Both the position numbers and the translations under genes were made by a program. The notes beneath the pieces are model-generated. The model was given only the letters and a program-made list of their open reading frames with translations. It did not search any database and was not told the origin of the DNA. This document shows, piece after piece, positions 27 to 59,498 of a DNA stretch of 64,000 nt. Every line of letters starts with the position of its first letter. Positions within the stretch are counted from its first letter, which is position 1. The DNA is from an uncultured Ligilactobacillus sp. (GTDB taxonomy: Bacteria; Bacillota; Bacilli; Lactobacillales; Lactobacillaceae), in contig CAKPZY010000002.1 in the NCBI GenBank assembly GCA_934215475.1, positions 1 through 64,000 of the forward strand. Direction: 5' to 3'.

Positions 27-512
27 TCTCTCCCAATGGATAGGTCAATGGGTAAAATTTAAGCGGTGTTTTACCCAATGGAATGTCTATTGGATAAAAC
101 ATGGGCTTCTTTTTATCCATTGACTCGTTCATTGGATAAAACTTCTCTTAGTTTTTATCCAATGGCTGTATCATTGGCGAAAACTTCTCTCTACTTTTAT
201 CCAATGAGCCTTTCATTGGATAAAACATGGGCTTCTTTTTATCCATTGACTCGTTCATTGGGTAAAACTTCTCTTAGTTTTTATCCAATGGCTGTATCAT
301 TGGCGAAAACTTCTCTCTACTTTTATCCAATGAGCCTTTCATTGGATAAAACATGGGCTTCTTTTTATCCATTGGCTTGTCCATTGGGGAAAAATCCTTT
401 TAGTTTTTATCCAATGGTTGTGTCATTGGCGAAAACTTCTCTCTACTTTTATACAATGGGCGTTTCATTGGAAAAAAATCCCGCCATTTTCACCAATTAC
501 CTTTTCCCATAG
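27..512. repeat. Tandem array of a 42-bp palindromic repeat (array 1, about 11 units)
   Basis: Units begin at 27, 69, 111, 153, 195, 237, 279, 321, 363, 405 and 447, with a decayed one near 489; the period is exactly 42 bp. A unit is TTTTATCCAATG, a 7-nt loop, CATTGGATAAAA and an 11-nt spacer, so the arms are inverted repeats able to form a 12-bp stem. Variants include TTTTACCCAATG, TTTTATCCATTG, CATTGGCGAAAA and CATTGGGTAAAA. Because 42 is a multiple of three, a 148-codon reading frame (66-512, GTG start, no Shine-Dalgarno) stays open and reads as a 14-residue FYP...DKT repeat; I regard this as a by-product. The 126 bp at 111-236 and 237-362 differ at one base, indicating recent expansion. 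The same family recurs at 26693-26902. Function unknown. Confidence 0.9.
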
Positions 513-661: not shown

Positions 662-696
662 AAAAAAGGCCAGATAGTTTACTAACTATCTAGCCC
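662..696 (-). terminator. Rho-independent terminator after the GntR gene
   Basis: Read on the minus strand, a stem of about 12 bp (GGCTAGATAGTT with AACTATCTGGCC, one T.G wobble) and a 4-nt loop are followed by six T residues. It closes the galactonate operon/regulator transcript and separates it from the repeat array. The stretch 513-661 shows nothing recognisable. Confidence 0.85.
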
Positions 697-733: not shown

Positions 734-1414
734 TCAATAACTCTCGTCAATCTTCTCAAGCGGATCGATCATTGAATTGATATGCATTTCCATCAACTTC
801 CTAGCTTCTTCACCATCCCTGGTCAGAATAGCGGATGCAATTAATTGATGATACAAAGCTGCCTTGGTCCTCATTTGCGGCAGTGTATTCGTCATGCGCC
901 GAGTTGATATTTGATACTTTGAAAGAGACAGCGACATTATCAATAAAGCTGGCTGAGCAGCACCTTCAGCGATCAATTGATGAAATTTTAAATCGGTAGT
1001 TAAAAAACTGTCACCGACCTGCATTTCCTGGTCAAGCTGATCAGCGACGTTTTGAATTTGTTGTTGTAAACTTTCGTCACTGTTTTGCGCACATAAAAAG
1101 GCTTGCTCGGGTTCGATCAGTAAACGAGCCTTTAGCATTGAGAGCAGTGGTATTTTGGAAATTTCTTTGTTATCAGAGGCGTAGACTGAGTTAGGGTCAT
1201 TGCGCAAATAAATTCCTCTCCCATGTTCTATACTTATGACACCCTGATCTGCCAAAGTATGCAGTGCCTCACGCACGATCGTGATGCTTATCCCCATCTC
1301 ATTCGCTAATTGCTTTATAGTGGGCAACCTCTGACCAGCCTGCCATCTTTTATTTTTGATGTTTTTATTTAAGTTAGTCAGTGCCTGTTCATACACCGAT
1401 GGTTTTGCCTTCAT
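734..1414 (-). CDS. GntR-family (FadR/FCD) regulator of the galactonate operon
   Basis: A 226-residue transcription factor. Residues 1-70 form the GntR winged helix (LPTIKQLANEMGISITIVREAL, then a GRGIYL wing). Residues 85-215 form an all-helical FCD effector domain with the DLKFHQLIAEGA segment and later histidines in LYHQL and MEMHI that in this family bind a metal and a carboxylate ligand. FCD regulators of this kind control sugar-acid catabolism (DgoR, UxuR, LldR types). The ATG follows AAAGGTGG. It is the last gene downstream of the permease, beyond a hairpin at 1461-1503, and probably represses the operon until galactonate or a derivative is present. Family assignment is firm; the ligand is inferred from neighbours. 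Confidence 0.88.
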   Translation of the reverse strand: MKAKPSVYEQALTNLNKNIKNKRWQAGQRLPTIKQLANEMGISITIVREALHTLADQGVISIEHGRGIYLRNDPNSVYASDNKEISKIPLLSMLKARLLIEPEQAFLCAQNSDESLQQQIQNVADQLDQEMQVGDSFLTTDLKFHQLIAEGAAQPALLIMSLSLSKYQISTRRMTNTLPQMRTKAALYHQLIASAILTRDGEEARKLMEMHINSMIDPLEKIDESY

Positions 1415-4539: not shown

Positions 4540-5691
4540 CTACCATTCAGCGATAGTTCCGTCTTCATGCCGCCAAACTGGATTATGCCAATCAGTCGGT
4601 TTGGCAGCCTTTTCTCTGACTAGATCTTCGTTAACAATTACGCCTAAACCTGGTAATTGAGGAATCTTAACGTAACCCTTGTCGTATTCGAAAATCTCAG
4701 GATTTTTAATGTAGTCCAGTAAATCATTTGTTTTATTATAATGAATGCCCAAGCTCTGTTCTTGAATAAACGCATTATAGACTGTGGCATCTACTTGCAA
4801 GCAGGCCGCTAAAGCAATTGGTCCAAGCGGACAATGGAAAGCAACAGCAACGTCATAAGCTTCTGCCATCGAAGCAATTTTTTTACATTCAGTGATCCCG
4901 CCTGCATGTGACAGATCTGGTTGAATAATATCCACATTATTGCTGTGCAAAAGCTCCTTGAAATCCCACCGGGTAAACATTCTTTCCCCTGTCGCAATTG
5001 GAGTTTGTGTCAATGAGGTGATCTTGTCCAAGGCATCATTATTTTGCGGCAAAACCGGCTCTTCAATGAACATCAAATTATATGGCTCTAGCGCTTTGGC
5101 TAAGACTTTAGCCATTGGTTTGTGGACGCGGCCGTGAAAATCAACGGCAATACCAAAATAAGGTCCGCAACTGTCTCGAATAGCTTTCACCCGCTCAACA
5201 ACTTGGGCCACCTTGTCATAAGTATCAATGATCTGCAATTCTTCAGTCGCATTCATTTTGATTGCTGTAAAGCCAATTTCTTTACGTTTCAAAGCTTCCT
5301 GCCCTACGTCACTCGGCCGGTCTCCGCCGACCCAGGAATAAACTTTAATTGAGTTGCGGACAGCTCCGCCCATTAATTGGTAAATGGGTTGATTTAAAGC
5401 CTTGCCTTTAATATCCCATAAAGCCTGATCGATCCCGGCAATAGCACTCATTAAGATCGGACCGCCACGGTAAAAGCCGCTACGGTACATTTTTTCCCAG
5501 GCATCTTCGATCCTAGAGGGATCAGAACCAATCAGAGAATCCATCAACTCATGGACGGCTGATTCAACAGTCAACGCGCGGCCTTCAATGACAGGCTCGC
5601 CCCAACCACTGATACCTTCGTCTGTTTCGACTTTTAAAAACAACCAGCGCGGTGCTACACGAAAAGTTTCGTAACTTTTGATTTTCATCAT
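4540..5691 (-). CDS. dgoD: D-galactonate dehydratase
   Basis: A 383-residue enolase-superfamily acid-sugar dehydratase. Mg ligands are D184 (VDFHGR), E210 (FIEEP) and E236 (TGERM). H186 and H286 (AFHCPLGP) are the catalytic histidines expected for galactonate dehydratase, which converts D-galactonate to 2-keto-3-deoxygalactonate. The N-terminal capping domain (1-120) and C-terminal [11 protein letters not shown] ending match DgoD closely. It is the first gene of the operon, transcribed from a promoter with an overlapping cre-like palindrome at 5758-5786. Two tandem ATG codons are possible starts; the first is used here. Identification is firm. Confidence 0.93.
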
Positions 5692-18401: not shown

Positions 18402-18955
18402 ATGAATATCACTTTAAAAGAACTAAAGAATAACGAACTGCCAGATTTCTGGAATTTGGCATTCAGCGATCCCAATGCAGAATGGACGAAATGGAACGGG
18501 CCTTATTTTAATGATAAGCTGCCAACTAAAGAGTCTTTTTTGGACACTTCATATAAAAATCCTTATTTAAATGATCATTTCCATTAAATGATCATTTCCA
18601 TAAAATTATCTGGGCCGACAAACAGATGGTGGGAATGGTTTCTGCATATTATGCTGATGAACCCTTAGAATAATGGTTGGATGTCGGAATTACTGTCTAT
18701 CAACAGTTAAAATGGCATAGGGGGATTGGAAAAGCTGCTTTAAACCAATGGATAACTGAGCTATTTGCAACCACAACATTACCGCATATTGGCCTAACGA
18801 CCTGGTCTGGCAACCAGCGGATGATTGCCTTGGCCAAGAGTTTAGAAATGAAGAAAGAAGCCGAAGTTCGCCAAGTTCGCTATTGGCAAGGAAAATATTG
18901 GGATTCTGTAAAGTATGGCATTTTACGTTCAGAGTGGGAAAAAAGAGGGATTTAA
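18402..18955 (+). pseudogene. GNAT acetyltransferase, broken by a 17-bp tandem duplication and a stop codon
   Basis: The first frame (18402-18593) encodes the N-terminus of a RimJ/RimL-like GNAT protein and ends at TAA just inside a perfect tandem repeat of TAAATGATCATTTCCAT (18568-18584 and 18585-18601). Removing one copy restores the frame into HKIIWADKQMVGMVSAYYAD, but a second lesion, TAA at 18671-18673, then interrupts it before WLDVGITVY. The remainder (to 18955) has the acetyl-CoA-binding region (KWHRGIGKAALNQWITELF) and the LTTWSGNQRMIALAKSLEM end typical of the family. Two independent lesions argue for a genuine pseudogene. Confidence 0.85.
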
Positions 18956-24983: not shown

Positions 24984-25071
24984 TCTATTTTTTATGTAAT
25001 TTTTTTGAATTGTTTTGGACAATTTTTAGTCCTTTCTTTGCTCTGATCATATATTGGGGGAGGTTTTTTTC

Positions 25072-26634
25072 TTGAAGCACGATAAGGTTTTCCAGACCGT
25101 TTTACTTAGTCTTTCGCTCCTGCTTTTCTCTGGCTTCACATATTCACACCATCCGATCCACAATCAGCATCCACTTGATCCTAATATTCCGGTAAAGGTC
25201 ACCGGGGGCCAAGTGACTGGGACATATTCGCAACATCACGATGTGGCTATCTACAAGGGGATACCCTATGCTAAATCGCCAACTGGAAATTTGCGTTGGC
25301 AAGATCCGAAGAATGTGTCTCCATGGAATGGTGTTCTGAAAGCCGACAAATGGGGCAAGAGCCCAATTCAAAATGATCCTGCTCCATTTGAGGAATGGTC
25401 GCAAGAATTTGTCAATGCCGATACAGGATTGTCCGAAGATGCGCTCAATTTAAATGTATGGTCAAAAACGGACCACAACAAACGCAAACCAGTGATCGTT
25501 TATGTTTACGGTGGGGGTTTTAATTCAGGCGGCTCGTCATGTCCAGTGTACGACGGCGAAAACATTGCGAAACAAGGTGCAATTTTTGTCAGTTTCAATT
25601 ATCGTGTGGGAACTATGGGATTTCTTGCCCATCCCGAACTAACTAAGGAATCCAAAGACGGCACATCAGGAAACTATGGTTTGATGGATCAAATCAAGGC
25701 CTTGCACTGGGTTAAACGTAATATTCAGCAATTTGGCGGTGATCCTAATAATATTACTTTAATGGGTCAGTCTGCCGGCGCCGAATCTGTCAATGACCTG
25801 ATGATCTCCCCGAAAGCTAAGGGATTATTTAACAAGGCAGCTGTTTTAAGTATTAACTACTACGAACGTAAGCTTCCATCCTTGGCTGAAAAAGAGGCAG
25901 AAGGAGCCAAGGCATTTGCAGGCAAATCCTTAACCCAGATGCGCCAACTTTCTGCCAAAGATGTGTTAGGTGCCAGTTATAAAGGCCGTCCGAACATAGA
26001 TGGCAAGGTTATCCCCGGCAACTATATTGATGAAGTCAAAAAGGGCAATGCGATGGACATCCCTGTTTTGGCAGGATACACACAAAATGACATCGAAGGC
26101 GAATTGCTATCTACCAATAATTTGACTAAATCGTCTTATGAACAACAAGTCCGTGAAAAGACTGGTCCTTATGCTGATCAATTCCTGAAGTTGTATCCAG
26201 CCACTGACGCGAACGTCAAAAAAGTTGCAGACAAATTGAATGTCGATGATCTGCTGGTCAAACAAAACGAGTTGGCGCGGATCAAAAATGCCAATTACCA
26301 TAGCCGTACTTACAATTATCTGTTCTCACACGTAATGCCCGGCCCGGAAGCTGATAAATGGGGCGCTTTCCACACTTCAGATGTCCCTTATTTTCTCAAT
26401 AATTTTTCAGACTTGCGCAAAGACTATTGGACTAATAATGACTTCTACCTTGGCTATACGATGTCGCGTTACCTGGTCAACTTTGCCTATACTAGTCAAC
26501 CGAACTCGTTTGGTGTTCCTGCTTGGCCTGCTAACAGAGGAAACTATGAATATATGAACCTCGATTCCCGTTCCAGCATGACACGTTTTTCCCCGGCTAA
26601 GATCAAACTATTCCAACAGCTGCATAATTATTAA
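25072..26634 (+). CDS. Secreted type-B carboxylesterase (PnbA-like)
   Basis: A 520-residue alpha/beta-hydrolase of the carboxylesterase type-B family. A signal peptide (KVFQTVLLSLSLLLFSGF) ends near residue 23, so it is exported. The nucleophile is S234 (MGQSAGAES), the oxyanion hole is YGGGFNSGG, the histidine is about H434 (GAFHTSDVPYF), and an acid residue lies near 340 (NDIEGE). I chose TTG 25072 as start, 8 nt after GGGGGAGG, over the TTG at 25054. Likely substrates are acetylated or feruloylated plant esters; this is inference. A palindrome and cre site lie upstream. Confidence 0.88.
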   Translation: MKHDKVFQTVLLSLSLLLFSGFTYSHHPIHNQHPLDPNIPVKVTGGQVTGTYSQHHDVAIYKGIPYAKSPTGNLRWQDPKNVSPWNGVLKADKWGKSPIQNDPAPFEEWSQEFVNADTGLSEDALNLNVWSKTDHNKRKPVIVYVYGGGFNSGGSSCPVYDGENIAKQGAIFVSFNYRVGTMGFLAHPELTKESKDGTSGNYGLMDQIKALHWVKRNIQQFGGDPNNITLMGQSAGAESVNDLMISPKAKGLFNKAAVLSINYYERKLPSLAEKEAEGAKAFAGKSLTQMRQLSAKDVLGASYKGRPNIDGKVIPGNYIDEVKKGNAMDIPVLAGYTQNDIEGELLSTNNLTKSSYEQQVREKTGPYADQFLKLYPATDANVKKVADKLNVDDLLVKQNELARIKNANYHSRTYNYLFSHVMPGPEADKWGAFHTSDVPYFLNNFSDLRKDYWTNNDFYLGYTMSRYLVNFAYTSQPNSFGVPAWPANRGNYEYMNLDSRSSMTRFSPAKIKLFQQLHNY

Positions 26635-26692: not shown

Positions 26693-26902
26693 TTTTCGCC
26701 ATTGACGGGTTCATTGGGTAAAAGATAGGTGACTTTTTATCCATTAAACCTTCCAGTGGGTAAAACATGCGGAGATTTTTATCCATTGACCTTTCCATTG
26801 GATAAAATATTGGGGAAGTTTTATCCATTGACCAGCCTATTGGGTAAAAGATTGGGAAAGTTTTATCCATTAAGCTTGTCATCGGGTAAAAGTGACGGAC
26901 GT
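26693..26902. repeat. Second array of the 42-bp palindromic repeat (array 2, five units)
   Basis: Units begin at 26693, 26735, 26777, 26819 and 26861, again exactly 42 bp apart, with the same TTTTATCCATTG / CATTGGATAAAA arms as array 1 but different loops and spacers. Because each unit is nearly self-complementary, both strands carry open frames reading FYP...DK-type peptides (26658-26882 minus, 26729-26926 plus). This points to selection on nucleic-acid symmetry, not on a protein. The array lies between the stop of the esterase gene and the shared terminator at 26941, so it would be transcribed as its 3' UTR. Confidence 0.9.
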
Positions 26903-27003: not shown

Positions 27004-28500
27004 TTATTTCTTGAGTCGTACTACTTTATCGGCCACTTCGCCAATAAAATGCTGATCATGTTCGATCAACAAGACTGTCGGTTGGGTTCTCGACAACAGT
27101 TGGATCAGCTGATCTTGGTTATACGTATCCAAGTAATTCAACGGTTCATCCCAAACATATAGTTCTGCCTCCTGTGACAAGGATTTGGCAACTTCTACTC
27201 GTTTTTGCTGCCCCATGCTCATATTCTCGATCCGCTGGTTAAATACTTCTCTTTCGAGGCCTAATTTGTGTAAATTATTCAAAAACATTTCGAAATCCAA
27301 CTGATGCTCGCTTGCAAAATCTTGAAGTGTACCCGTATTATTTTCGTACATTTGCCGAATGTAGCTAATGCTAATATTTGCAGGGATTCGAATTTCTCCC
27401 GTGACCTTTCCGGTAAACTTTCCTGTGAGAGCGCGCAAAATACTGGTTTTGCCACTGCCGTTCGGACCTTCTAAAGCAACGCATTGCCCGCGCTTGACAT
27501 TAAAACTAACTGGCGCAAATAATGAGTGCTTATCATAATGCAGTTCTAAGTTGGCAGTATGGACCAAAGTCTTGTGATGGGAACTTTTGTAAGCCAAGGA
27601 CAAGGGATCAATGAATTCAATATTCTTCAGCAATTTCTTCTTTTCACTGATCTCATTATCCATCCGCTTTTTCAAACTTTTTGAGCGCTTCATTGTTCTG
27701 GCTGCGCGTGCGCTAGTGGGGCCATCATGCCCCGTTCCACCACTGCCAAAAATATGCGGGTTGCCGTGGTTATCACTTTCACGTGATTCAGCCCACCGCT
27801 TTTTATCTGCACTTGTTTGTTTTAAACGACCAATATCCTTTTTCAGTTTGGTGTTTTGCTGAGTTTCATACTCATCTCGCAAGCCCTTTTCATGCTGATA
27901 AGTCGAATAATTTCCGTGATATAACTCAAGCTTCATTTTCTCAATGGCCAAAATATGGTTGCAACATGCGTCAATAAAGTCACGGTCATGACTGACTACC
28001 ACAAAGCCCTGTTTTTTATTCTTCAAATATTCTGCGACCTGGACACGACCATCAATATCCAGGTGATTGGTTGGCTCATCGATCAATGGAAATCCATTAT
28101 CGTCTGTAAAGAGCAAAGCCAGCATTAACTTAGTTTGCTCTCCCCCTGACAAAATTTCAAACGGGCGCCATAAAAGATCCGGATCAACCCCCATCTGGTT
28201 GAGCTCTCGTTCCAGTTGCCACTCTTCAAATGAATTATTTTCACTTAAAGCATAAATCGCTAACTGCGACTGATCAGTAGCTTCCTGCGGAAAATAGGTA
28301 AAATCAACTTGTTGCGTAATTTCTCCTTGATATTCCAATTTTCCCTGTAAGAGCTTGAGCAAAGTTGTTTTCCCACGACCGTTTCTACCAAACAGGCCCA
28401 ACTTCCACTCGGAATCCAGGTTCAGATCAACATCTTGGAATAGTGGCCTTTCCTGACCCGGATAGCTAAACGTTAAGTGTTTAATTTCAATTTGAGACAT
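27004..28500 (-). CDS. ABC-F family ATPase, Lsa-type (ribosome protection)
   Basis: A 498-residue cytoplasmic protein with two ABC cassettes and no membrane domain. The first cassette has GRNGRGKTT, LSGGEQTK and LIDEPTNHLD. The second has GPNGSGKTS, MSMGQQKRVEVA and VWDEPLNYLD. They are joined by a charged linker (about 200-300), the part that reaches the ribosome's peptidyl-transferase centre. Size and arrangement match Lsa/Vga-type proteins that displace lincosamides, pleuromutilins or streptogramin A. Start ATG 28500 lies 6 nt after GGGG inside the palindrome CAAAAGGGGCTTTTG. A long structured leader lies upstream. Resistance is inferred, not shown. Confidence 0.88.
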   Translation of the reverse strand: MSQIEIKHLTFSYPGQERPLFQDVDLNLDSEWKLGLFGRNGRGKTTLLKLLQGKLEYQGEITQQVDFTYFPQEATDQSQLAIYALSENNSFEEWQLERELNQMGVDPDLLWRPFEILSGGEQTKLMLALLFTDDNGFPLIDEPTNHLDIDGRVQVAEYLKNKKQGFVVVSHDRDFIDACCNHILAIEKMKLELYHGNYSTYQHEKGLRDEYETQQNTKLKKDIGRLKQTSADKKRWAESRESDNHGNPHIFGSGGTGHDGPTSARAARTMKRSKSLKKRMDNEISEKKKLLKNIEFIDPLSLAYKSSHHKTLVHTANLELHYDKHSLFAPVSFNVKRGQCVALEGPNGSGKTSILRALTGKFTGKVTGEIRIPANISISYIRQMYENNTGTLQDFASEHQLDFEMFLNNLHKLGLEREVFNQRIENMSMGQQKRVEVAKSLSQEAELYVWDEPLNYLDTYNQDQLIQLLSRTQPTVLLIEHDQHFIGEVADKVVRLKK

Positions 28501-28503
28501 CAA

Positions 28504-49278: not shown

Positions 49279-52086
49279 CTAATTTGCTAACGTTTCACTA
49301 GGAACCGAAAGTTTGCGGGAAAAATATTTCCGCACCTCATCCAGAAAAATCAGCGGCAGAGGTATGCAAAATAAGAAGATCCAGTCGCGCAGTACTAAAG
49401 GCGCCGTTCCAAATACTTGTTGCAAAAACGGAACGTAACACATGCATAAAAGTAACGCACCTTCAAAAATTATTCCACCATAAATCAATCCATTTGAGAA
49501 AAATCGATTACGGTGAAACAGAGATTCTTGGTTATAACGACAGTTCAATACGGCCGCCATTTGGCAAAAGATGACTGAACCTAAAACTACTGTTGTCGCC
49601 TGCCGATAATCCATTCCCGAAGCAGCTAAGTTCGGATAATAGTGACCATCCACTGCATTACTAAAGAAATATCCGCCGATAGAAATAACAGATGCCAAAG
49701 CTCCGTACCAACAAAAAGCCTTGACCAAGAGTTTCTTTGTGATCAGATGTGTCGAAGGCCTTCGCGGAGGACCAGACATAACTTCCGACTCAGGCACTTC
49801 ACGCCCTAGGCCAAGGGCGGGGAGCATATCCGTACCAAGGTCGATCAATAATATTTCCATAACAGTTAAAGCCAGTGGTATTTTGCCTCCACTGAACAGA
49901 AACAACGCGGATGGTACTGCTTCTGGAAGGTTAGAATTGAGAATATAGAGCAGAAACTTTCTGATGTTACTATATACTCCACGTCCTTCTTTGATGGCAG
50001 CCACGATCGAGGCAAAATTATCATCAGTTAACACCATATCCGCAGCTTCTTTAGCAACATCAGTCCCAGTCTGACCCATTGCGACACCGATATCCGCTTT
50101 CTTTAAAGCCGGCGCATCATTAACACCATCGCCGGTCACAGCCACAATATGGCCCATTTTTTGCAGCAACGAAACCACACGATATTTTTGTTCAGGGGCC
50201 ATACGTGCAAACACGATCTGACCGGCCAAGGCTTTCGTTAATTCTTGATCAGTCATTTTTTGCACTTGCGGTCCAGAAACAACGTTAATATCTTTTTTGC
50301 TATCCACGATCCCGATCTTCTTTGCGATCGATTCTGCCGTTAATCCATTATCACCAGTGACCATAATGACTTTGATCCTAGCTTTCCGACATTCCTTTGC
50401 TGCTTTAACTGCTTCGGGACGCGGCGGATCATACATTGCAACCAATCCCAAAAAAGTCAGCTCTGTTTCTGCTTGACTTTGTGTGATCTTGTCACTATCC
50501 AAAGATCCCTTTTTAGCTAGTCGCTTACCGGCCACTGCCAGCACTCGCAGCCCTTGCTTAGCATAACCATCATTGGCCTCATTTATTTCTCCTTTTTGAC
50601 TAGAAGTGAGCTCCTTTTCTTCTCCCTTAACAAAATAAGTAGTACATTTGTCGATCACGCTGTCTGGAGCGCCCTTAGTGTAACTGTCAAACTGCCGTTG
50701 GTCCTTTCTTTCAACCAGGACGGTCATCATTTTACGATCAGAATCAAAAGGAAATTCACGCAAGCGCGGATGCTTTTTCCTTTCCTCTTGCGTGTCGATC
50801 TTAGCCTTTTGTGCGACTACTTCTAAACAAGCTTCTGTCGGGTCCCCAATGACTGAATAGCCTGGATGGCCCTTTGAAGGCCCCTTGATCTTAGCATTCT
50901 CAGACAATAAACCTCCTGCCAATAATTCATCCAATTCAGGATCCTGGCCAGTATGCATCCTTTTTGGCCCATTAAAGATCCCACCATTCGGGTCATAACC
51001 AGGGCCAGTCACATGATACGAATCCATCAACGTCCACAAATGACCGACCGTCATTTGGTTACGGGTTAAAGTACCAGTTTTATCCGAACATATCACTGAA
51101 GCAGAACCCAATGTCTCCACACTCGACAACCTCTTAACCAAAGCATTTTTCCTGGCCATGCGTGAAACAGCGCCTGCTAGGGAAAGAGTCACAGTCGGCA
51201 GCAACCCTTCTGGAATGAAGGCAACGATCATACCCAAGGCAAAAACAAACGAATCTACCACAGGATAATGAACGAGGAAGGCCGCACTTAAAAAGAAGAT
51301 CAAACCGATCGAGACCGCCAACAAAGAGATTTGCTTAGTCAATACGTTAAGTTCTTTTTGCAATGGGCTAAGTTTATTGGCGACGTTTTGTGTGAGAGCA
51401 GCGATTTTGCCAAAATCAGTTTCCATCCCGATTTTGACCACCACACCCGTACAATGTCCCTTCATGACTGATGTTCCGGAAAAAACTATATTTTTAATAC
51501 TGGAGTGCTCTGTGCCCTTTTGGGTATACACCCGCTCATTTTTATCTATCGGGTCTACTTCACCCGTTAAAGTTGATTGGTCCACTCTTAATCCAGAAGC
51601 ACTTAATAACCGGATATCGGCTGGAACACCATCGCCTTCATCTAAAATAACGATGTCGCCGGGAACTAAGTCATTTGCTAGGACTTTAGTTTGCTTGCCA
51701 TCGCGAACAACCTGGCTATTTTGCGCTAACATACTGTTCAAAGCTGCAGTAGCCTTGCTCGCTTGAAACTCTTGCCAAAAACTAAACAAACCGTTGATCA
51801 GATTCACTGCCCAAATGGCGATACCAAGCTCGACCAATCCCGCAACAAATGCGATACCGCCCGCGATCCATAATAGAATGGCCATCAGACTGGTGAAATT
51901 TTTAAGGAAGGTCAATGCCAGCGGAGTTGATTTTCCCTTGCTTAAAATATTCGCCCCAAATTGGGAGCGGCGTGCTTTGGCTTCCTCACTTGTCAGTCCT
52001 TTTTTCCCTGTTCCTAATTGGGTAAAGACGTCTTCTTCCTTAAGCCCAGCTGCTTTTTCAATATTATTCTCGGTAACCTTTCGCAT
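49279..52086 (-). CDS. P-type cation-transporting ATPase (type II, Ca2+/Na+,K+-like)
   Basis: A 935-residue P2-type ATPase. The actuator has LTGE (STLTGEVDPID), the phosphorylation site is D about 334 in CSDKTGTLT, the nucleotide-binding domain has KGAPD, and the hinge is TGDGVNDAPALKKADIGVAMG. FIPEGLLPTVT in TM4 and a six-helix C-terminal membrane domain place it in the P2A/P2C range. Transported ion is not settled; Ca2+ or Na+ are the candidates. Start ATG 52086 follows AAGGTGAG; an upstream frame to 52143 lacks a site. Monocistronic. Confidence 0.9.
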   Translation of the reverse strand: MRKVTENNIEKAAGLKEEDVFTQLGTGKKGLTSEEAKARRSQFGANILSKGKSTPLALTFLKNFTSLMAILLWIAGGIAFVAGLVELGIAIWAVNLINGLFSFWQEFQASKATAALNSMLAQNSQVVRDGKQTKVLANDLVPGDIVILDEGDGVPADIRLLSASGLRVDQSTLTGEVDPIDKNERVYTQKGTEHSSIKNIVFSGTSVMKGHCTGVVVKIGMETDFGKIAALTQNVANKLSPLQKELNVLTKQISLLAVSIGLIFFLSAAFLVHYPVVDSFVFALGMIVAFIPEGLLPTVTLSLAGAVSRMARKNALVKRLSSVETLGSASVICSDKTGTLTRNQMTVGHLWTLMDSYHVTGPGYDPNGGIFNGPKRMHTGQDPELDELLAGGLLSENAKIKGPSKGHPGYSVIGDPTEACLEVVAQKAKIDTQEERKKHPRLREFPFDSDRKMMTVLVERKDQRQFDSYTKGAPDSVIDKCTTYFVKGEEKELTSSQKGEINEANDGYAKQGLRVLAVAGKRLAKKGSLDSDKITQSQAETELTFLGLVAMYDPPRPEAVKAAKECRKARIKVIMVTGDNGLTAESIAKKIGIVDSKKDINVVSGPQVQKMTDQELTKALAGQIVFARMAPEQKYRVVSLLQKMGHIVAVTGDGVNDAPALKKADIGVAMGQTGTDVAKEAADMVLTDDNFASIVAAIKEGRGVYSNIRKFLLYILNSNLPEAVPSALFLFSGGKIPLALTVMEILLIDLGTDMLPALGLGREVPESEVMSGPPRRPSTHLITKKLLVKAFCWYGALASVISIGGYFFSNAVDGHYYPNLAASGMDYRQATTVVLGSVIFCQMAAVLNCRYNQESLFHRNRFFSNGLIYGGIIFEGALLLCMCYVPFLQQVFGTAPLVLRDWIFLFCIPLPLIFLDEVRKYFSRKLSVPSETLAN

Positions 52087-52482
52087 AATCTCACCTTCAT
52101 CTTTGGAATCATACCAATTGATAAAAATAAACCAGCAGACCAATTTTGTGTTGCTGGTTATAAGATATTCAGACTCATTATAGTTCTATCTAATCAAACT
52201 AGGTACCAAAAACATTCCAGATATTTCTAAAAAATCATAAACCTCAAAAATGATTGTGAAGCCATATTTAAAGCTGAACAATCAAACTTAATTCAACCTC
52301 TTTCTAAAGTGAACGGCACAAAAAATCATTACTTATTATTGAACGACGTGATTCATTTGTTAGAACTCATCATTAAATTAGGTGATATCTTTGTTATTTC
52401 TAAATAATTGAAAAATTTTAGATATAAGTTTACGGTAAATGTAAGCGGTTACTTGAGATGTTTTTAGAAAGGAAGTTTAACC
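52087..52482 (+). promoter_or_regulatory. Intergenic region with promoter and cre site of the GH5 gene
   Basis: TTGAAA (52408-52413), a 17-bp spacer and TACGGT (52431-52436) form a weak promoter. TGTAAGCGGTTACT (52440-52453) directly after it matches the CcpA cre consensus closely. The remainder, which should hold the divergent ATPase promoter, shows nothing clear. Confidence 0.65.
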
Positions 52483-53760
52483 ATGAAAAAAACCAGTTTC
52501 ATCAGGTTTTTGTTGACCGTAACGGCTGCAGTTCTTTTGTTCGCTATCCCTTATGCCGTTCGCGCCGATTCCTTGCCTATGTTAGGAACAAGTGGGAAGC
52601 AAATTGTAAATTCTTCTTCTAATCAAGAAGTCAAGTTGCGCGGAGTAAACGCCGGCGGTTTATTTGTGACAGAAGACTATATGACCAATCGTCCGAGTCC
52701 TTCACACCCAAGCGGTGCTATCCAATACGAGGATGATGTGGATATGATGAATCAGTTAGAAAGTCAGTACGGTGATGAAAAAACACAACAAATCACCAGC
52801 AAATGGCAAGACAATTATTGGACGGAGCAAGATTTTGAGAATGTAAAGAATATGGGAATGAATGTCATCCGTCTGCCTTTTGCCTATTACAACCTGATCG
52901 ATTACGCAAATTACGATCCAAGTTCAACTTCAGAAGTAACCTTACGTGACGGCGCTTTTGATAAGCTGGACTCATTCATTGACCAAGCTGGTCAACATGG
53001 GCTCTATGTTATTTTGGACCTTCATGGAGCGTTTGGATCACAAAGCGGACAAGAAAATTCTGGTGACAAAACCACTGACCCGAAGCTTTTCAAAGACGAT
53101 TCAGAGGGCCAACGCGATCGTGCTTTGACTAACAGTTTGTGGGAAAAAGTCGCTGAACATTACCAAGGTAACTCGACAGTTGCCGGCTACGATCTATTAA
53201 ACGAACCAAAGAATTACCAAGATGGCAGTGGTAGGACAGACAGCCAAGTCTTTGATTACTATGACCAATTGATAAATACCATCAGAGGAAAAGATAGTGA
53301 CCATATCATCTTTCTAGAATCAACCTGGGAACCAAGCGATATGCCAAACCCGGCAGACAAAGGCTGGACAGACAACAATATCGTCTATCAATATCACTTT
53401 TACGCTTGGGATCCAGATAATTCCTCAGCTGATGCCATCAGAAATTTCTATAACGGCAAAGTTGACGAAATTTCAGAGGCTAACTATAACGTTCCGGCCT
53501 ATATCGGCGAGTTTAGCATTCCGCAAAACAGCTATGCTCCAACAAGTGATGATTGGCAGAATGTTTTAAGTACCTTTAATAAAAATGACTATTCATGGAC
53601 TATTTGGAATTACAAAACTACAGCTGACATGAACACATTTGGTTTATATCAAGAAGATCGGCAAAATCAAGATCCAAACTCTGACGATTGGGGTCAAGCC
53701 CAGAACTTACAACCAAATACTACGATTCAGCAAGCTGTGAAAAATACGATCGGTCAATAG
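52483..53760 (+). CDS. Secreted GH5-family beta-glucanase/cellulase-like enzyme
   Basis: A 425-residue exported enzyme. The signal peptide (MKKTSFIRFLLTVTAAVLLF) ends near AVRA-D29. The TIM-barrel motifs are RLPFAYYN, DLHG (179-182), acid/base E241 in YDLLNEP and nucleophile E343 in YIGEFS. It resembles exo-beta-1,3-glucanase/cellulase-like GH5 enzymes. No anchor or binding domain is visible. The ATG follows GAAAGGAAG and a cre site lies upstream, so it is probably glucose-repressed. Likely substrates are plant or yeast beta-glucans. Confidence 0.9.
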   Translation: MKKTSFIRFLLTVTAAVLLFAIPYAVRADSLPMLGTSGKQIVNSSSNQEVKLRGVNAGGLFVTEDYMTNRPSPSHPSGAIQYEDDVDMMNQLESQYGDEKTQQITSKWQDNYWTEQDFENVKNMGMNVIRLPFAYYNLIDYANYDPSSTSEVTLRDGAFDKLDSFIDQAGQHGLYVILDLHGAFGSQSGQENSGDKTTDPKLFKDDSEGQRDRALTNSLWEKVAEHYQGNSTVAGYDLLNEPKNYQDGSGRTDSQVFDYYDQLINTIRGKDSDHIIFLESTWEPSDMPNPADKGWTDNNIVYQYHFYAWDPDNSSADAIRNFYNGKVDEISEANYNVPAYIGEFSIPQNSYAPTSDDWQNVLSTFNKNDYSWTIWNYKTTADMNTFGLYQEDRQNQDPNSDDWGQAQNLQPNTTIQQAVKNTIGQ

Positions 53761-53820
53761 CTAACATATTTTTTAATGATGGGCCGGTAATAAATAACTG
53801 CATGCAGTAGATACAAATTA

Positions 53821-53849
53821 TTGCATGTAGTTTTTGTAAGCGCTACACT
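53821..53849 (+). promoter_or_regulatory. Promoter of the acetoin reductase gene with overlapping cre-like site
   Basis: TTGCAT (53821-53826), a 17-bp spacer and TACACT (53844-53849) form the promoter. TGTAAGCGCTACAC (53835-53848) overlaps the spacer and -10 and resembles a cre with a mismatched end. Confidence 0.6.
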
Positions 53850-53890
53850 TGTATTACATTCAGCTAATATAAGGATAGGAGGAATTTTAA

Positions 53891-54667
53891 ATGTCAAAAA
53901 AAGTTGCCGTAGTTACAGGTTCAGCCGGCGGTTTAGGCAGAGGGATCGCAGAACGTTTGTTAAAAGACGGATTTAAAGTAATGGTCCATGACATCAACGA
54001 AGAAACATTAAGCGCTACAGAAAAAGAACTTAAAGCCCAAGGTTACGATGTGGGCAGCTACGTTGGTGATGTTTCTAAAAAAGAAGATCAGGAAGGGTTA
54101 GTGGCTGCGACTGTTAAAAAATTCGGCCAACTAAATGTGTTTGTCAATAATGCTGGGATCGAGGCTGTCACTCCATTCTTGAAGATCGACGAAAAAGAAT
54201 TGGAAAGAACATTCAAGATCAATGTTTTTGGGACAGTCTTTGGTTCACAGGCGGCCGCTGAACAATTCATCAAACAAGGTACACCTGGTAAGATCATCAA
54301 TGCTTGCTCGATCGCAGGCCACGAAGCATACGAAGTATTAGGAACATATTCAGCAACTAAGCACGCTGTTAAGGCCTTTACCTATGTTGCTGCCAAAGAA
54401 TTAGCCTCCAAGCATATCACTGTTAACGCCTATTGCCCAGGAGTGGCCAAAACAAAGATGTGGGATCGGATCGATGCCGAAATGGTCAAGGCAGATCCTT
54501 CTTTGAAACCAGGAGAACCATTCGCAAAATTCTCTGGCGAAATTGCTTTAGGCCGGTACGAAAAACCGGAGGATGTCGCTAATTTAGTTCACTTCTTGGC
54601 TTCTGACGATTCAGATTACATTACCGGACAGGCGATCTTAGTAGATGGCGGACTGGTTTATAGATAA
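53891..54667 (+). CDS. budC: Diacetyl/acetoin reductase (2,3-butanediol dehydrogenase-type SDR)
   Basis: A 258-residue [20 protein letters not shown] is the NAD(H) motif. [11 protein letters not shown], the serine of [11 protein letters not shown] and the YSATK catalytic pair (Y-x3-K) follow the (S)-acetoin-forming diacetyl reductase pattern, as do the substrate loop [14 protein letters not shown] and the C-terminus. It reduces diacetyl to acetoin and probably acetoin to 2,3-butanediol. It lies 3 kb from an acetoin-dehydrogenase-type operon, suggesting shared metabolism. The ATG follows AGGAGG. Confidence 0.88.
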
Positions 54668-54682
54668 CTAAACATTTAAAAA

Positions 54683-54722
54683 GAAGCATCCGCCATCTGG
54701 TTTGACGGCGGGTGTTTCTTTG
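54683..54722 (+). terminator. Terminator after the acetoin reductase gene
   Basis: GAAGCATCCGCC pairs with GGCGGGTGTTTC (one or two wobbles) and ends in TTCTTTG. Confidence 0.8.
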
Positions 54723-54735
54723 TATACTCAGATAA

Positions 54736-55815
54736 TTAACCATTAAAACTGGCAATTTTTTCTGCATCCAAGTCTCGCAAGATCGCAACCACTAATTGAA
54801 CAGCATGTTGAAAATCATCCAGTGATGTCCAATTATAGGCAGTGTGTTCATAACGAACAGGGATCCCAACAACTATGGTTGGAGCGCCATTCCAATATTG
54901 GATAGCAGCACCATTTACGCCGCCGCCAGTCCGCACGGAACGCGTATGGGGTATCTTATTTTTAATAGCTATTTGATCAGCATATTCCTCAAATAGGGGA
55001 TTAGCTATAAAAGAGGTATCCATATCGCGTAACATTGGCCCTTTTTTTAAGCCGGTTTGAATTAACCAATCTTCTTCGAAGGTATCGTCACACGGGCAGC
55101 CCTCAAAAACGATAGCCAGGTCGGGTGAAACCTTGCGGGCGGTGACCTTAGCACCCCGCAGCCCCACTTCTTCTTGGTTCGATAAAGCAGTGTTAATATC
55201 CACCGCCAAATTTTGCCCATGTAACTGGTCTAATACATCAACGAGTGCAGCGGAACCAACTCGGTTGTCAAAGTCTTTACCCAGAAATAGTCTGGTAGAA
55301 GGATAATATTCGCAATCAACGTCAGGTACAATAGGACAGCCTGTGTCAATTTTAAAATCTCGCAGCGTTTCTTCACGGCTTGTTGAGCCGACATCGATCG
55401 ACATTTCGGCAATCTGCGGAACGTGCTTCTTTTCCGCTGCGGTCATAAAATGCGGCGGCTTGCTGGCGACCACACCCTTGATATATTTACCATCTTTATT
55501 TCTAACTCTGACCTTGGTAGTTGGAATATTAGTCGGGACCCAACCGCCTAAAGTCACAAATTTCAACAATCCATTTGGGCGGACTGCTTGCGTGATAAAG
55601 CCCACGGAATCAGCATGTGCATCTAATTGAACAGTTGGTCTTTTGCCGGTATTTTCAAAGCGATCCACATAACTATTGAACAGCCCATCGCGAGTTACCT
55701 TGCCAAAAGAACCAGTTCGCTTGGCAAAATAATGCGCCACTTCTGTTTCGAATCCTGGAGCTCCATTGAGATTAGAAAAATCCTGAATAAGTTGGATCTC
55801 TTCTTGTTCTTGCAC
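54736..55815 (-). CDS. M42-family metallo-aminopeptidase
   Basis: A 359-residue zinc aminopeptidase of the FrvX/glutamyl-aminopeptidase family. The metal and catalytic positions are seen as LDAHADSVGF, GKDFDNRVG, NQEEVGLRGA, FEGCPCDD and VGIPVRYEHT. Such cytoplasmic enzymes remove N-terminal residues from peptides, and some M42 members are linked to sugar operons. The start is GTG 55815, with AAGGGG upstream. Monocistronic. Confidence 0.88.
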   Translation of the reverse strand: MQEQEEIQLIQDFSNLNGAPGFETEVAHYFAKRTGSFGKVTRDGLFNSYVDRFENTGKRPTVQLDAHADSVGFITQAVRPNGLLKFVTLGGWVPTNIPTTKVRVRNKDGKYIKGVVASKPPHFMTAAEKKHVPQIAEMSIDVGSTSREETLRDFKIDTGCPIVPDVDCEYYPSTRLFLGKDFDNRVGSAALVDVLDQLHGQNLAVDINTALSNQEEVGLRGAKVTARKVSPDLAIVFEGCPCDDTFEEDWLIQTGLKKGPMLRDMDTSFIANPLFEEYADQIAIKNKIPHTRSVRTGGGVNGAAIQYWNGAPTIVVGIPVRYEHTAYNWTSLDDFQHAVQLVVAILRDLDAEKIASFNG

Positions 55816-56048
55816 TAAGCATCTACCCCTTTATCCAAACCGCGTGCTTGAGGTGAGAATATTTAAGTTGCTACTAACTGCACAACTACGTCCTTTAAAT
55901 TAGCAAGCTCTCATCTAATAAGCTGAGTATATCCAAATGTTACCGTCTTTTCAAGGTTACTCTACGGTTATAGATACAAATAAATAGATATTAAACGGTT
56001 TATTAGCCGTATATTGATATTATATTATTATAAAAGCTAAAAATATGC

Positions 56049-56226
56049 TTGACGGAATGAGAAGCTTATAATATAATAATATTAAATTGAATTCCGTGTT
56101 ATATCAAGAACTAGCGAGTGGTTACACACTTTGACCTAGTAGCAACCTGCCTTGAGGTAAGGTGCTTCACTGTAAACGGATATACGTCACTCAACCGTGT
56201 TCGTATTTCCGAACGCGGTTTTCTTT
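56049..56226 (+). ncRNA. Attenuator-like leader RNA with strong promoter and terminator
   Basis: TTGACG (56049-56054), a 17-bp spacer and TATAAT (56072-56077) form a near-consensus promoter. From about 56084 the RNA contains GAGTG (56116-56120) able to pair with CACTC (56188-56192), GTTACA with TGTAAAC, an inner GCAACCT..AGGT..TGC element, and then a terminator AACCGTGTTCG/CGAACGCGGTT with TTTTCTTT (56193-56226). The gene at 56269 starts 43 bp later, so this is a cis-acting riboswitch or attenuator or a separate small RNA. No Rfam family could be named. The rest of 55816-56268 is AT-rich. Confidence 0.65.
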
Positions 56227-56268
56227 ATTAATAATAAAGTCCAAGTGACGTTAAAAGTGGAGGAAACT

Positions 56269-56610
56269 ATGATAAATTTATCAGAATCATTGGAAGACGG
56301 TTTAAGGACGCTGCTACTGAAACAATACGGGTTTGAAAGGGCAATTAATGGAGAAGATATTTCCGATGAAGATTTGGAATTAATTAAGCAAGCGTGTGCT
56401 GATCAACGTATTCAAACCAAGATTGCACACATTCAGATCAAGCGACGTGATGATGAATTACAGGCAGCCCTTGAGAGTTATCCGCACTTTAAGCATCCAA
56501 ACAGCTTCTCTTCAGGTATGCTGAGCAAAATTTACCATGATAGACTTATAGCAGCACTGCCGACCGCTGATGATCAACTCAAGAAAATGATTCAAAAAGT
56601 ACTCGAATAA
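56269..56610 (+). CDS. Hypothetical helical protein downstream of the structured leader
   Basis: A 113-residue soluble protein rich in charged residues, predicted all-helical (NLSESLEDGLRTLLLKQYGF, LELIKQACADQR, IKRRDDELQAALESYP). Start ATG 56269 follows GGAGG at 5 nt; the in-frame upstream stretch to 56197 runs through the terminator hairpin and lacks a site. Size and helix pattern are in the range of bacteriocin-immunity-like proteins, but no diagnostic motif supports that. Function unknown; control by the upstream leader is likely. Confidence 0.6.
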   Translation: MINLSESLEDGLRTLLLKQYGFERAINGEDISDEDLELIKQACADQRIQTKIAHIQIKRRDDELQAALESYPHFKHPNSFSSGMLSKIYHDRLIAALPTADDQLKKMIQKVLE

Positions 56611-56724
56611 AGCTTATCCTGTTTGTTGGTTCATCTATAGAGATTAAAAAATGGAAAAAATCCTTTCTCTTTTTAATTATTTTTCAGCAAGCAGTTGTAA
56701 AATTTATCAAGTACTTTATAAAAT

Positions 56725-56765
56725 AAGCTGGCTTTAGGCTGAATTTCTAGCCCTAGCCAGCTTTT
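56725..56765. terminator. Bidirectional terminator between convergent small genes
   Basis: AAGCTGGCTttAGGCT pairs with AGCCctAGCCAGCTT (15 bp with two mismatches), with TTTTCC on one side and TTATTTT on the other. Confidence 0.9.
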
Positions 56766-56787
56766 CCATTTTATTTAAGGATCTGGA

Positions 56788-57093
56788 TCAAAACAGTTCA
56801 TCTCCGCTTTTGAACTCTAAACCTGGGTGGTCATCAAAACGAACCACTCCAACAGCAATGTCATTACTTACTGCTTCCTTAATTTTAGCTGTCCCGATTA
56901 TGCCAAATCCACCGCATAGTTCGAGCGACTTAACACCTTGTCCTTCCATCTTTTTTGCCGCCTTAACAGCATCGGAGTAATCTTTTGCTCCGATCACATT
57001 TAGGAGCACTCCTGGCGTTTTTACAACATTATGATCTTTTTGATAATCGGCTCCAGGAGCCAAAAAGATAAAACCAGCTAGTAATTGTTCCAT
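56788..57093 (-). CDS. DUF6506-like small conserved protein
   Basis: A 101-residue protein starting MEQLLAGFIFLAPGADYQKD, with GVLLNVIGAKDYSDAVKAAKKMEGQGVKSLELCGGFG and KIKEAVSNDIAVGVVRFDDHPGLE-type segments. These are typical of a small alpha/beta protein family (DUF6506-like) of unknown function. Start ATG 57093 follows GGAGG; codons back to 57108 are not needed. It lies downstream of the acetoin-dehydrogenase operon, separated by a terminator (57148-57184). Confidence 0.7.
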   Translation of the reverse strand: MEQLLAGFIFLAPGADYQKDHNVVKTPGVLLNVIGAKDYSDAVKAAKKMEGQGVKSLELCGGFGIIGTAKIKEAVSNDIAVGVVRFDDHPGLEFKSGDELF

Positions 57094-57147
57094 ATTGCAA
57101 ACCTCCACAACTAATGCTTTTAATGATTCGCTTTTTGCTGAACTGTT

Positions 57148-57184
57148 AAAAAATACCTGATTTGACGTGAACGCAAACCAGGTA
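57148..57184 (-). terminator. Terminator of the acetoin-dehydrogenase-type operon
   Basis: TACCTG and CAGGTA pair around a 19-nt loop and are followed by TTTTTT on the minus strand. The hairpin is 50 bases beyond the stop of the E2 gene. Confidence 0.8.
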
Positions 57185-57201
57185 CTAATTAGCGCTTTAT
57201 G

Positions 57202-58422
57202 TCATAGGATCAGCTTATAAGGATTCTGTAAATTGTCTGCGATCTTACCTAAGAATTGGGCTGCCTGTTGTCCATCAATGATTTGGTGATCAAACGTCAA
57301 ACTCAAAGGCAACGTTGCTTTGGTCCCGATCTGTCCGGATTCATTCAAGGTCAATGCCTTTTGCAAGACACCAACACCCAAAATACCAATTTCTGGCGGA
57401 TCAATAATTGGTGTGAAGTATTCGATCTCTTCACGTCCCATGTTCGTGATAGTAAATGTCCCGCCAGTCATTTGATCAGGTGTCAGGCTGCCTTCGCGAG
57501 CTAAATCTGCCATGTGGTGTAATTCACGCCCCAGCATTGTCAAATTCATGTTCTGAGCATCTTTAATGATCGGCACCAGCAAGCCCTCGGCCAGACCGAC
57601 AGCCTCGCCAATATTAACTGAGTCAATTTGGGTCAACTTACCATCGACATAATTACTGTTCATTTGCGGTGTGTCTTGCAGGGCTAGGATAGCAGCACGA
57701 GTGATCAGCGTGTTGATGCTCAATTGGCTGTCTTGCAACTGATCGCCAGCTTTTGCCTTGATATCGCTCCTAAATGTCATTAGGGCATCCAAATCAACTT
57801 TACGCTGCAATGTGACCTGAGCAGTTGTATTCAAACTCTGCATCATATTTTGCGCAACAGCCTTGCGCATTCCTTTTAGACCGGCACCCCAATTTGCTGC
57901 ACCAGCCGCTGCAGTTGATGGAGCCGCTCCTTTTTCCGGCTGATTTGCTGCAAAATGTTCTATGTCACGCCGTGTGATCCGCCCGTTGCCGCCAGTTCCG
58001 ACGACTTGCGTATAATCTACACCTTTGTCTTGGGCAACTTTGCGAGCCAACGGAGTAATAAAGATCCTTTCCCCTTCTTTTCTGGCAGGTCTTTGCGGGC
58101 CAGCTTGCTCTTTGCCTGCCTCTTGTGGCTCCTTCTTTGTCTCTGGCTGTGTTTCTTTTGGAGTACCGCCTTCGATTTTTTCACCCTTTTCACCAATAAA
58201 GCCCATGTTTTCTTTGATTGGAACCTCATCGCCTTCTGGAACTACAATTTTTAAAAGTGTCCCGCTGGCCGGAGCCTCGACATTAGAAGACAATTTTTCG
58301 GAACTGATCTTAGCGACCACTTCTCCTTTTTTGACCGAATCACCTTCATGTTTTTTCCATTCTTCTACTGTCCCTTCATTCATTGTCAGACCAAGTTTGG
58401 GCATTGTGATAGCTGTAGCCAT
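57202..58422 (-). CDS. Dihydrolipoamide acyltransferase (E2) of a 2-oxoacid/acetoin dehydrogenase complex
   Basis: A 406-residue E2 component. One lipoyl domain (1-75) carries K43 in ISSEKLSSNVEAP as lipoylation site. A charged linker (80-115) precedes the E3-binding domain (about 118-150, ITPLARKVAQDKGVDYTQVVG). The acyltransferase core (175-406) has the active-site DHQIIDGQ, a variant of DHRxxDG. It transfers the acyl group formed by E1 to CoA. The ATG follows GGGGGG, with the E1-beta gene 14 bp upstream, so it is the last gene of the operon. The acetoin-type assignment comes from the E1 genes. Confidence 0.88.
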   Translation of the reverse strand: MATAITMPKLGLTMNEGTVEEWKKHEGDSVKKGEVVAKISSEKLSSNVEAPASGTLLKIVVPEGDEVPIKENMGFIGEKGEKIEGGTPKETQPETKKEPQEAGKEQAGPQRPARKEGERIFITPLARKVAQDKGVDYTQVVGTGGNGRITRRDIEHFAANQPEKGAAPSTAAAGAANWGAGLKGMRKAVAQNMMQSLNTTAQVTLQRKVDLDALMTFRSDIKAKAGDQLQDSQLSINTLITRAAILALQDTPQMNSNYVDGKLTQIDSVNIGEAVGLAEGLLVPIIKDAQNMNLTMLGRELHHMADLAREGSLTPDQMTGGTFTITNMGREEIEYFTPIIDPPEIGILGVGVLQKALTLNESGQIGTKATLPLSLTFDHQIIDGQQAAQFLGKIADNLQNPYKLIL

Positions 58423-58436
58423 ATTAATTCCCCCCC

Positions 58437-59471: not shown

Positions 59472-59498
59472 AATATTTTCCTCCTTGCTTACCGTGCG

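What the first reader, a model, noticed from the sequence alone, without database searches (positions are those of the whole stretch)
27..512. Tandem 42-bp palindromic repeat array of unknown function (array 1)
About 11 units with exactly 42-bp spacing each carry an inverted repeat TTTTATCCAATG / CATTGGATAAAA. Loop (7 nt) and spacer (11 nt) vary but repeat across units, unlike CRISPR spacers. With about 10.5 bp per helical turn, 42 bp equals four turns, so all half-sites face the same side of the helix, as in protein-binding arrays. Each unit can also form a 12-bp RNA hairpin. It lies just beyond the terminator of the galactonate operon and is not part of any recognisable gene.
Basis: partly seen in the sequence, partly recalled or inferred. 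Interest (0 to 1): 0.8.

Follow-up and report, generated by a model that had tools for sequence, protein, structure and literature searches.

The report
Tandem intergenic hairpin arrays in lactobacilli
The repeat is real and is one of many intergenic arrays, in six related lactic acid bacteria, built of a constant short linker plus a hairpin whose sequence changes between arrays while its two arms stay complementary; most of the arrays measured lie in one direction relative to GC skew, and my paper searches found no description of them.

Summary
Array 1 is 11 units at exactly 42 bp (27-477, first unit degenerate), with a 126-bp three-unit higher-order repeat; a sister array lies at 26693-26891 on the other strand. 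Covariance models then found the same architecture in 5 of 397 Lactobacillaceae genomes, all in one genus and the five best ABC-F matches to the window there. The unit is a conserved 13-nt linker (CTTTGCCNGACTT) plus a 9-11-bp hairpin. Linker and a CCA/TGG core are conserved; the other stem pairs covary between arrays. In 44 arrays not used for the model, a register set by the linker alone gives 72.7% Watson-Crick pairs, against 19-29% in shifted registers. Period 41 in 13 of 71 arrays, and no third-position bias in array 1, speak against coding. Orientation follows GC skew in 52 of 58 arrays; array 2 of the window is an exception. G-T pairs are not clearly favoured over A-C, so RNA selection is not supported. 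Two arrays sit at orthologous loci with different stems. REP/RAYT, CRISPR and coding readings fail tests; a KOPS-type word is not supported. Best reading: a new family of DNA-level hairpin satellites acting or evolving at the replication fork. Any trans-acting factor is unknown.

The parts
27..477 (+). Array 1: 11 units of 42 bp (unit starts 27, 69, 111, 153, 195, 237, 279, 321, 363, 405, 447; first degenerate). Linker reads on the + strand.
   Evidence: R2 hits at 184-238, 310-364, 436-490 (+) and a weak one at 106-154; orientation score difference only 4.8
89..477 (+). 126-bp higher-order repeat (three units), 3.1 copies at 94% matches: recent amplification inside array 1
26693..26891 (-). 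Array 2: five 42-bp units, linker on the - strand, between the esterase gene 25054-26634 (+) and the ABC-F type gene 27004-28503 (-), which converge
667..696 (-). Intrinsic-terminator-like hairpin between the GntR gene and array 1
   Evidence: 1 found, 1.2 expected from shuffles
734..1414 (-). GntR/FCD regulator gene, nearest gene to array 1
66..512 (+). Open frame (148 codons, GTG) running through array 1; read here as a by-product of the 42-bp period, not a gene

Best explanation
Arrays 1 and 2 belong to a clade-specific family of intergenic hairpin satellites. SHOWN: each 41-42-bp unit is a conserved 13-nt linker (CTTTGCCNGACTT) followed by a hairpin of 9-11 bp with a nearly invariant CCA/TGG core and otherwise variable but complementary arms; units are alike within an array and differ between arrays; in most arrays measured the linker lies on the C-rich strand, which by GC skew means a fixed orientation to replication. 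INFERRED: they act and evolve as DNA. When the strand is single at the replication fork the hairpins fold. Copying of one arm from the other (template switching at imperfect palindromes) and slippage rewrite the stem while keeping it self-complementary. The constant linker, core and period are kept because an unknown clade-specific factor binds linker plus hairpin in one orientation relative to the fork.
For: Covariation: 44 double-change cells against 21.1 +- 3.7 in shuffles, score 0.494 against 0.197 +- 0.028, best slid register 0.221. Independent register test: 72.7% Watson-Crick against 18.8-28.8% shifted in 44 arrays / 181 units outside the model. Over 17 stem clusters the non-core pairs are 59 of 102 against 31.6 +- 5.1, 0 of 5000 shuffles. 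Distribution: 5 of 397 family genomes; in the genus 20 of 26 genomes have no hit and one has a single weak hit. Orientation: 52 concordant, 6 discordant with GC skew, unchanged with arrays masked; 18:3 where flanking genes point in opposite directions; by contig 29 concordant, 5 discordant, 1 mixed. No significant G-T over A-C preference. Two orthologous loci with both flanks conserved carry arrays with different stems in the same orientation. Array 1 folds far better than shuffles as ssDNA, z -12.4.
Against: Array 2 of the window itself is oriented against the skew, as are 5 of 23 arrays of G187. Within arrays 1 and 2 the arm changes are not compensatory (arm permutation P = 0.75-0.84), so pairing is not tightly held unit by unit. 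Four of 17 stem clusters pair at only 2-4 of 9 positions. No factor was found, and binding, folding in the cell and any phenotype are untested. Orientation is judged from local GC skew, not from mapped origins. Arrays of one genome fall into stem families and are not all independent (17 clusters among 59 arrays). The arrays were fetched because the model hit there.
Confidence: 0.5

Rival explanations
1. Double-stranded protein-binding array: a dimeric nucleoid, partition or regulator protein binds CCA...TGG dyads spaced about four helical turns apart.
For: The CCA/TGG core at stem positions 5-7 is nearly constant; the period is 41-42 bp in nearly all arrays; convergent gaps exceed divergent ones (19 to 5, P 0.007).
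Against: The outer and inner stem pairs covary across arrays, which a fixed recognition sequence does not need; 41-bp arrays drift in helical phase; orientation to GC skew is not expected of a symmetric site.
Confidence: 0.23
2. RNA element: tandem hairpins in 3' ends of transcripts that stabilise or end mRNA, or a hairpin RNA sponge with repeated linkers.
For: Covarying stems; array 1 folds as RNA with z -13.5; many arrays follow a gene.
Against: G-T is not clearly favoured over A-C (27 against 18 arrays); orientation follows GC skew rather than the neighbouring genes in 4 of 5 arrays flanked by two lagging-strand genes; no Rfam match to the arrays in the window or in five relative loci.
Confidence: 0.12
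3. Purely neutral satellite: hairpin-driven slippage and template switching alone create and keep the arrays; orientation reflects different stability in the two orientations.
For: Alike units and a higher-order repeat, no unit-level compensation, several contig ends at arrays.
Against: The same linker and CCA/TGG core recur in 59 arrays of six species with different stems, and arrays persist at two orthologous loci.
Confidence: 0.25
4. REP/BIME/REPIN family moved by a RAYT (Y1) transposase.
For: Extragenic palindromes in tandem; P. fluorescens has tandem REP arrays in opposite orientation on the two sides of the chromosome (PMC3116915, passages read).
Against: G187 and G384 carry arrays but no Y1 transposase domain was found in their draft assemblies (PF01797); stems are not one conserved palindrome per genome.
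Confidence: 0.05
5. Translated repeat: array 1 encodes a 14-residue repeat peptide (FYPM...LDKT).
For: A 148-codon frame is open through array 1, the equivalent linker-strand frame of array 2 is also open, and one predicted protein in a public set resembles it.
Against: In array 1 differences between units fall equally on codon positions 1, 2 and 3 (27, 31, 27 cells); 13 of 71 arrays have period 41; 44 of 71 arrays have no open frame on the linker strand; no Pfam domain.
Confidence: 0.03

Closest known systems
Tandem REP arrays / BIMEs / REPINs (enterobacteria, Pseudomonas)
   Same: Extragenic palindromic units in tandem, dispersed in one genome; tandem GI-GIII REP arrays in P. fluorescens SBW25 are forward at about 2 Mb and reverse at about 4 Mb (PMC3116915, passages).
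   Different: There the palindrome is conserved and tied to a RAYT; here the palindrome varies and the linker is conserved, and no Y1 transposase was found in two array-bearing genomes.
Quasi-palindrome template-switch correction
   Same: Makes imperfect inverted repeats more perfect; would keep arms complementary without conserving sequence (start of abstract of PMC3820800 in a search listing).
   Different: A mutational process studied in yeast in that paper, not an array family; a link to these arrays is inference.
KOPS/Chi-type replication-oriented motifs
   Same: Fixed orientation relative to replication (recalled).
   Different: Those are single dispersed words (recalled); outside arrays the linker words are not among the most over-represented skewed words, although some purine-rich ones are skewed, as purine-rich words generally are.
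CRISPR arrays
   Same: Regular repeats with palindromic parts (recalled).
   Different: The parts between palindromes recur and are themselves the conserved linker; no unique spacers.

Membership tests
REP/BIME/REPIN | Extragenic palindromic repeats | tested here: met
REP/BIME/REPIN | One conserved palindrome sequence (or few) per genome | tested here: not met
   17 stem clusters in 59 arrays; G321 has arrays in 11 clusters and G187 in 6
REP/BIME/REPIN | RAYT-type Y1 transposase in the genome | tested here: not met
   PF01797: 0 in G187 and G384; 1 in G321, 1 partial in G368, 2 broken fragments in G359; 14 of 26 genomes of the genus have a match, 11 of them without arrays (G376 counted as without). 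Draft assemblies.
REP/BIME/REPIN | GTAG-type tetranucleotide at the hairpin foot (recalled) | not tested
   linker ends C-T-T at the 5' foot in most of 248 units; no dedicated test
CRISPR | Unique spacers between identical repeats | tested here: not met
   loops and spacers recur between units
Tandem-repeat protein gene | Period a multiple of three and open frame throughout the family | tested here: not met
   13 of 71 arrays have period 41 only; 44 of 71 have no open frame on the linker strand. In the window both arrays do have one open linker-strand frame.
Tandem-repeat protein gene | Differences between units concentrated in third codon positions | tested here: not met
   array 1: 27, 31, 27 non-majority cells at positions 1, 2, 3
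Functional RNA | Covariation of stem pairs | tested here: met
   (also expected of DNA hairpins)
Functional RNA | Excess of G-U over A-C on the transcribed strand | tested here: inconclusive
   6.5% against 4.4% of cells; 27 against 18 arrays, 14 ties; 63 against 37 cells in 28 hand-set arrays
KOPS/Chi-type motif | Over-represented, skewed word outside arrays | tested here: inconclusive
   AAGTCAGG 7 against 14 (G321), 5 against 4 (G187); GGCAAAG 65:37, 69:76; but GGCGAAG 39:10, 26:11 and GGGAAAG 36:12, 33:24 are skewed; none is in the printed top over-represented lists
Protein-bound array | Specific binding in vitro or in vivo | not testable with these tools
   none

The most novel reading that the evidence does not exclude
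A replication-fork-oriented DNA hairpin array system: a factor confined to one lactobacillar clade reads linker plus hairpin shape, not stem sequence, on single-stranded DNA at dozens of intergenic sites, leaving the stems free to be rewritten by template switching while geometry, period and orientation are kept.
Probability: 0.3. Interest if true: 0.88.

Novelty: new variant of a known kind. Interest (0 to 1): 0.72.

Why it matters
Bacterial palindromic repeats are normally recognised by a conserved palindrome. Here the palindrome varies and the spacer is conserved, with orthologous arrays whose stems differ completely but still pair. That makes a direct test case for how palindromes keep their symmetry (selection or template switching), for what fixes the orientation of repeats to replication, and for a possible shape-reading factor. 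The arrays also lie at several assembly breaks in these species and could serve as variable typing loci.

Tried and rejected
Exact palindrome pattern in genome contigs and viral contigs: none. With up to 3 mismatches in 397 family genomes: scattered hits in 34 genomes, no array; the backward control pattern rings in 28 by my count of the listing. A looser pattern hit 4 of 26 genomes of the genus; the eight loci looked at showed no tandem array and were taken as chance. Plasmid and phage blastn with array 1: no match. Megablast of window 1-25000 and 25001-50000 against plasmids: none and one 71% hit over 3%; 50001-64000 was not sent. Rfam: no family in the window; in five relative loci no match to the arrays. 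Coding: one 94-aa predicted protein, P0001, resembles the frame and also the sequence just after the array, so it is probably the same locus with about three units in a relative; its DNA was not fetched. KOPS-type word not supported. RAYT rejected. R1's first hit in G359 (E 0.003 per genome, 1 of 397) was not significant by itself over 397 genomes; the later tandem hits and R2 made it so. R1 with lax filters on nine chosen genomes also gave one weak hit in G204 (E 0.32), not confirmed by R2. R2 in order and class samples rings only in the centre genome G187 itself, 1 of 158 and 1 of 136. Literature, listings only except where stated: half-site words (seven lumpy-skin-disease papers, unrelated), linker words (four unrelated papers), topic searches: no description of such arrays noticed; PMC3116915 was searched for passages.

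Species name: not established. In the ATPase search G321, G368 and G384 gave no match at the 1e-200 limit, so their closeness to the window rests on the ABC-F search of one genus. My guess of a Ligilactobacillus-like genus is recall from genome sizes and GC only.

Full report
What is there. Array 1 is a true tandem array with a period of exactly 42 bp. Eleven left arms can be placed at 27, 69 ... 447; the first is degenerate. A three-unit, 126-bp higher-order repeat at 94% shows recent amplification and explains why loops and spacers recur. A second array, 26693-26891, sits on the other strand between two convergent genes. Outside the two arrays no palindrome of this kind scores above 6 bits in the 64 kb: the 16 units score 24-44 bits, the best of five shuffles 8.3 (the matrix was trained on 15 of those units). 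At lags 20-130 the window has self-similarity only at 42, 84 and 126 at the threshold used.

First surprise: the half-site is private. The palindrome pattern has no match in genome contigs (one genome for each of 84,980 species) nor in viral contigs, and only scattered near-matches in 34 of 397 family genomes, much like the backward control. No genome is held for the window. Within one genus (26 genomes held, unnamed) G359, G187, G321, G384 and G368 give the best ABC-F hits, 64-67%; for the P-type ATPase G187 and G359 lead at 70-71%, while the other three gave no match at the strict limit.

Second surprise: the architecture is not private. A covariance model of two units (R1) rang in 1 of 397 genomes, G359, and with lax filters also in G187 and G321, with a weak hit in G204. 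Those arrays have the same period but different palindromes: TTTTAGCCGATT/AATTGGCTAAAA, TTTGTTCCAAA/TTTGGAACAAA, TTTTAGCCAGT/ACTGGTTATAA, GCTCCAGAG/CTCTGGCTC and more. Lag spectra over 376 kb of G187, 350 kb of G321 and 80 kb of G359 peak at 41-42 bp and multiples; G187 also has three lag-33 repeats. Stretches of G141, G284, G092, G368, G384 and G331 (40-200 kb each) have no array at lags 40-43. The G368 and G384 stretches had missed those genomes' few arrays, which the second model found later.

Anatomy of the unit. Aligning units from different arrays shows a conserved linker, CTTTGCCNGACTT, then a hairpin of up to 11 bp, then two bases. Stem positions 5-7 (CCA/TGG) hardly vary; the others vary and pair. 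On the 19-row alignment 79.8% of cells pair, with 44 double changes against 21.1 +- 3.7 in shuffles and a covariation score of 0.494 against 0.197 +- 0.028; the best slid register gives 0.221. That alignment was hand-oriented, with 9 of 28 printed units dropped, so I repeated the test without stem information: units were placed by the linker alone in arrays with confident orientation (248 units, 59 arrays). In the 44 arrays (181 units) outside the alignment, 72.7% of the first nine pairs are Watson-Crick, against 18.8-28.8% when one arm is slid by 1-4 bases. Collapsing to 17 stem clusters and leaving out the core, 59 of 102 pairs are Watson-Crick against 31.6 +- 5.1 (0 of 5000 shuffles); four of the 17 clusters pair at only 2-4 of 9 positions. 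In G368 and G384, never used for the model, the first C-G of the core is T-A instead (GCGTTCAGT/ACTGAACGT).

Distribution. The second model (R2) hits 5 of 397 family genomes: G187, G321, G359, G368, G384. In order and class samples only the centre genome G187 rings (1 of 158, 1 of 136). With the window this makes six species.

Coding, DNA or RNA? Of 71 distinct arrays in fetched DNA, 13 have period 41 alone and 54 period 42 alone. A frame is open through array 1 and the equivalent linker-strand frame of array 2 is open too, but 44 of 71 arrays have no open linker-strand frame, and differences between the units of array 1 fall equally on the three codon positions (27, 31, 27), so I do not think the arrays code. 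If the linker strand acted as RNA, G-U pairs should far exceed A-C pairs; they are 6.5% and 4.4% of cells, and 27 arrays favour one, 18 the other, 14 tie. An earlier count with WC-defined stems in 28 hand-set arrays gave 63 G-T and 37 A-C. I call this inconclusive but not in favour of RNA. Orientation, in contrast, is strong: the linker lies on the C-rich strand in 52 of 58 arrays with confident orientation and skew of at least 0.02, also with arrays masked; 29 contigs are wholly concordant, 5 wholly discordant, 1 mixed. Where the flanking genes point in opposite directions, so that gene polarity is neutral, it is 18 to 3. Including low-confidence arrays it is 57 to 12. Against this, array 2 of the window and five G187 arrays are discordant, and local GC skew is only a proxy for replication direction. 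Array 1 (+ strand, negative skew) agrees, but its orientation score is low and it is not among the 58.

Place and history. By a simple caller of frames of at least 80 codons, flanks are convergent in 19, tandem in 36 and divergent in 5 of the 60 arrays with both flanks (convergent against divergent P 0.007), so promoter-type gaps seem under-used; one array ends just before a start codon (L267). Two arrays are positional orthologues with both flanks conserved: G187 L330 with G321 L316 (83 and 75% flank identity) and G321 L323 with G359 L243 (88 and 71%). Linker, orientation and approximate period persist (42 and 42; 42 and 41) and the stem is different. Within the window's arrays, arm changes are not compensatory (P 0.75-0.84), so complementarity shows between arrays, not unit by unit.

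Mechanism. The facts to be joined are a constant linker and core, variable but complementary stems, alike units within arrays, a fixed period and an orientation to GC skew. Selection for a fixed duplex half-site does not need stem covariation. RNA selection is not supported by wobble. DNA hairpins at the fork join them best: folding on single-stranded DNA, with template switching at imperfect palindromes and slippage rewriting stems symmetrically (inferred; a known mutational process, for which I saw only the start of the abstract of PMC3820800), and an unidentified clade-specific factor reading linker plus hairpin in one direction (inferred). A purely neutral version remains a serious rival.

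Known relatives. REP/BIME/REPIN elements are the closest kind; tandem REP arrays of P. fluorescens also lie in opposite orientations on the two sides of the chromosome (PMC3116915, passages). But no Y1 transposase domain was found in the draft genomes G187 and G384, and the palindrome is not conserved. I found no description in the paper searches listed under tried and rejected.

Noticed in passing
window 4540-5691 (-): The galactonate dehydratase is 84-85% identical to Weissella sagaensis and W. hellenica, while two other window genes match their nearest held relatives at only 67-71%: the operon may have been acquired horizontally.
   Followed up: partly
P0001 (ENA, 13,869-bp contig): A predicted 94-aa protein matches the frame through array 1 and the sequence just after it, as if the same locus in a relative had about three units: copy-number variation.
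   Followed up: partly
L177; L233 8673-9261 (G321): Arrays with different stems lie head to tail without a gap and share the linker register, as if one array had switched stem sequence part way.
   Followed up: no
G321 C7, C22; G359 C52, C55, C28; G187 C5: Several arrays lie at or near contig ends, so short-read assemblies of this clade may break at them and counts may be too low.
   Followed up: partly
L233 10996-11237 (-): T-box-like leader just below Rfam's gathering score (86.5 against 93 bits) about 1.7 kb from an array.
   Followed up: no
window 18567-18610: Short 17-bp tandem repeat (2.6 copies, 92% matches), of a different sequence and period from the 42-bp family.
   Followed up: no
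window, outside the arrays: Single half-sites above 9 bits number 26 against 12-13 in five shuffles; whether these are decayed units or base composition was not tested.
   Followed up: no
L340 1821-2005: Sub-threshold resemblance to Enterococcus sRNA RefB11 (39.1 against 54 bits) in G187.
   Followed up: no
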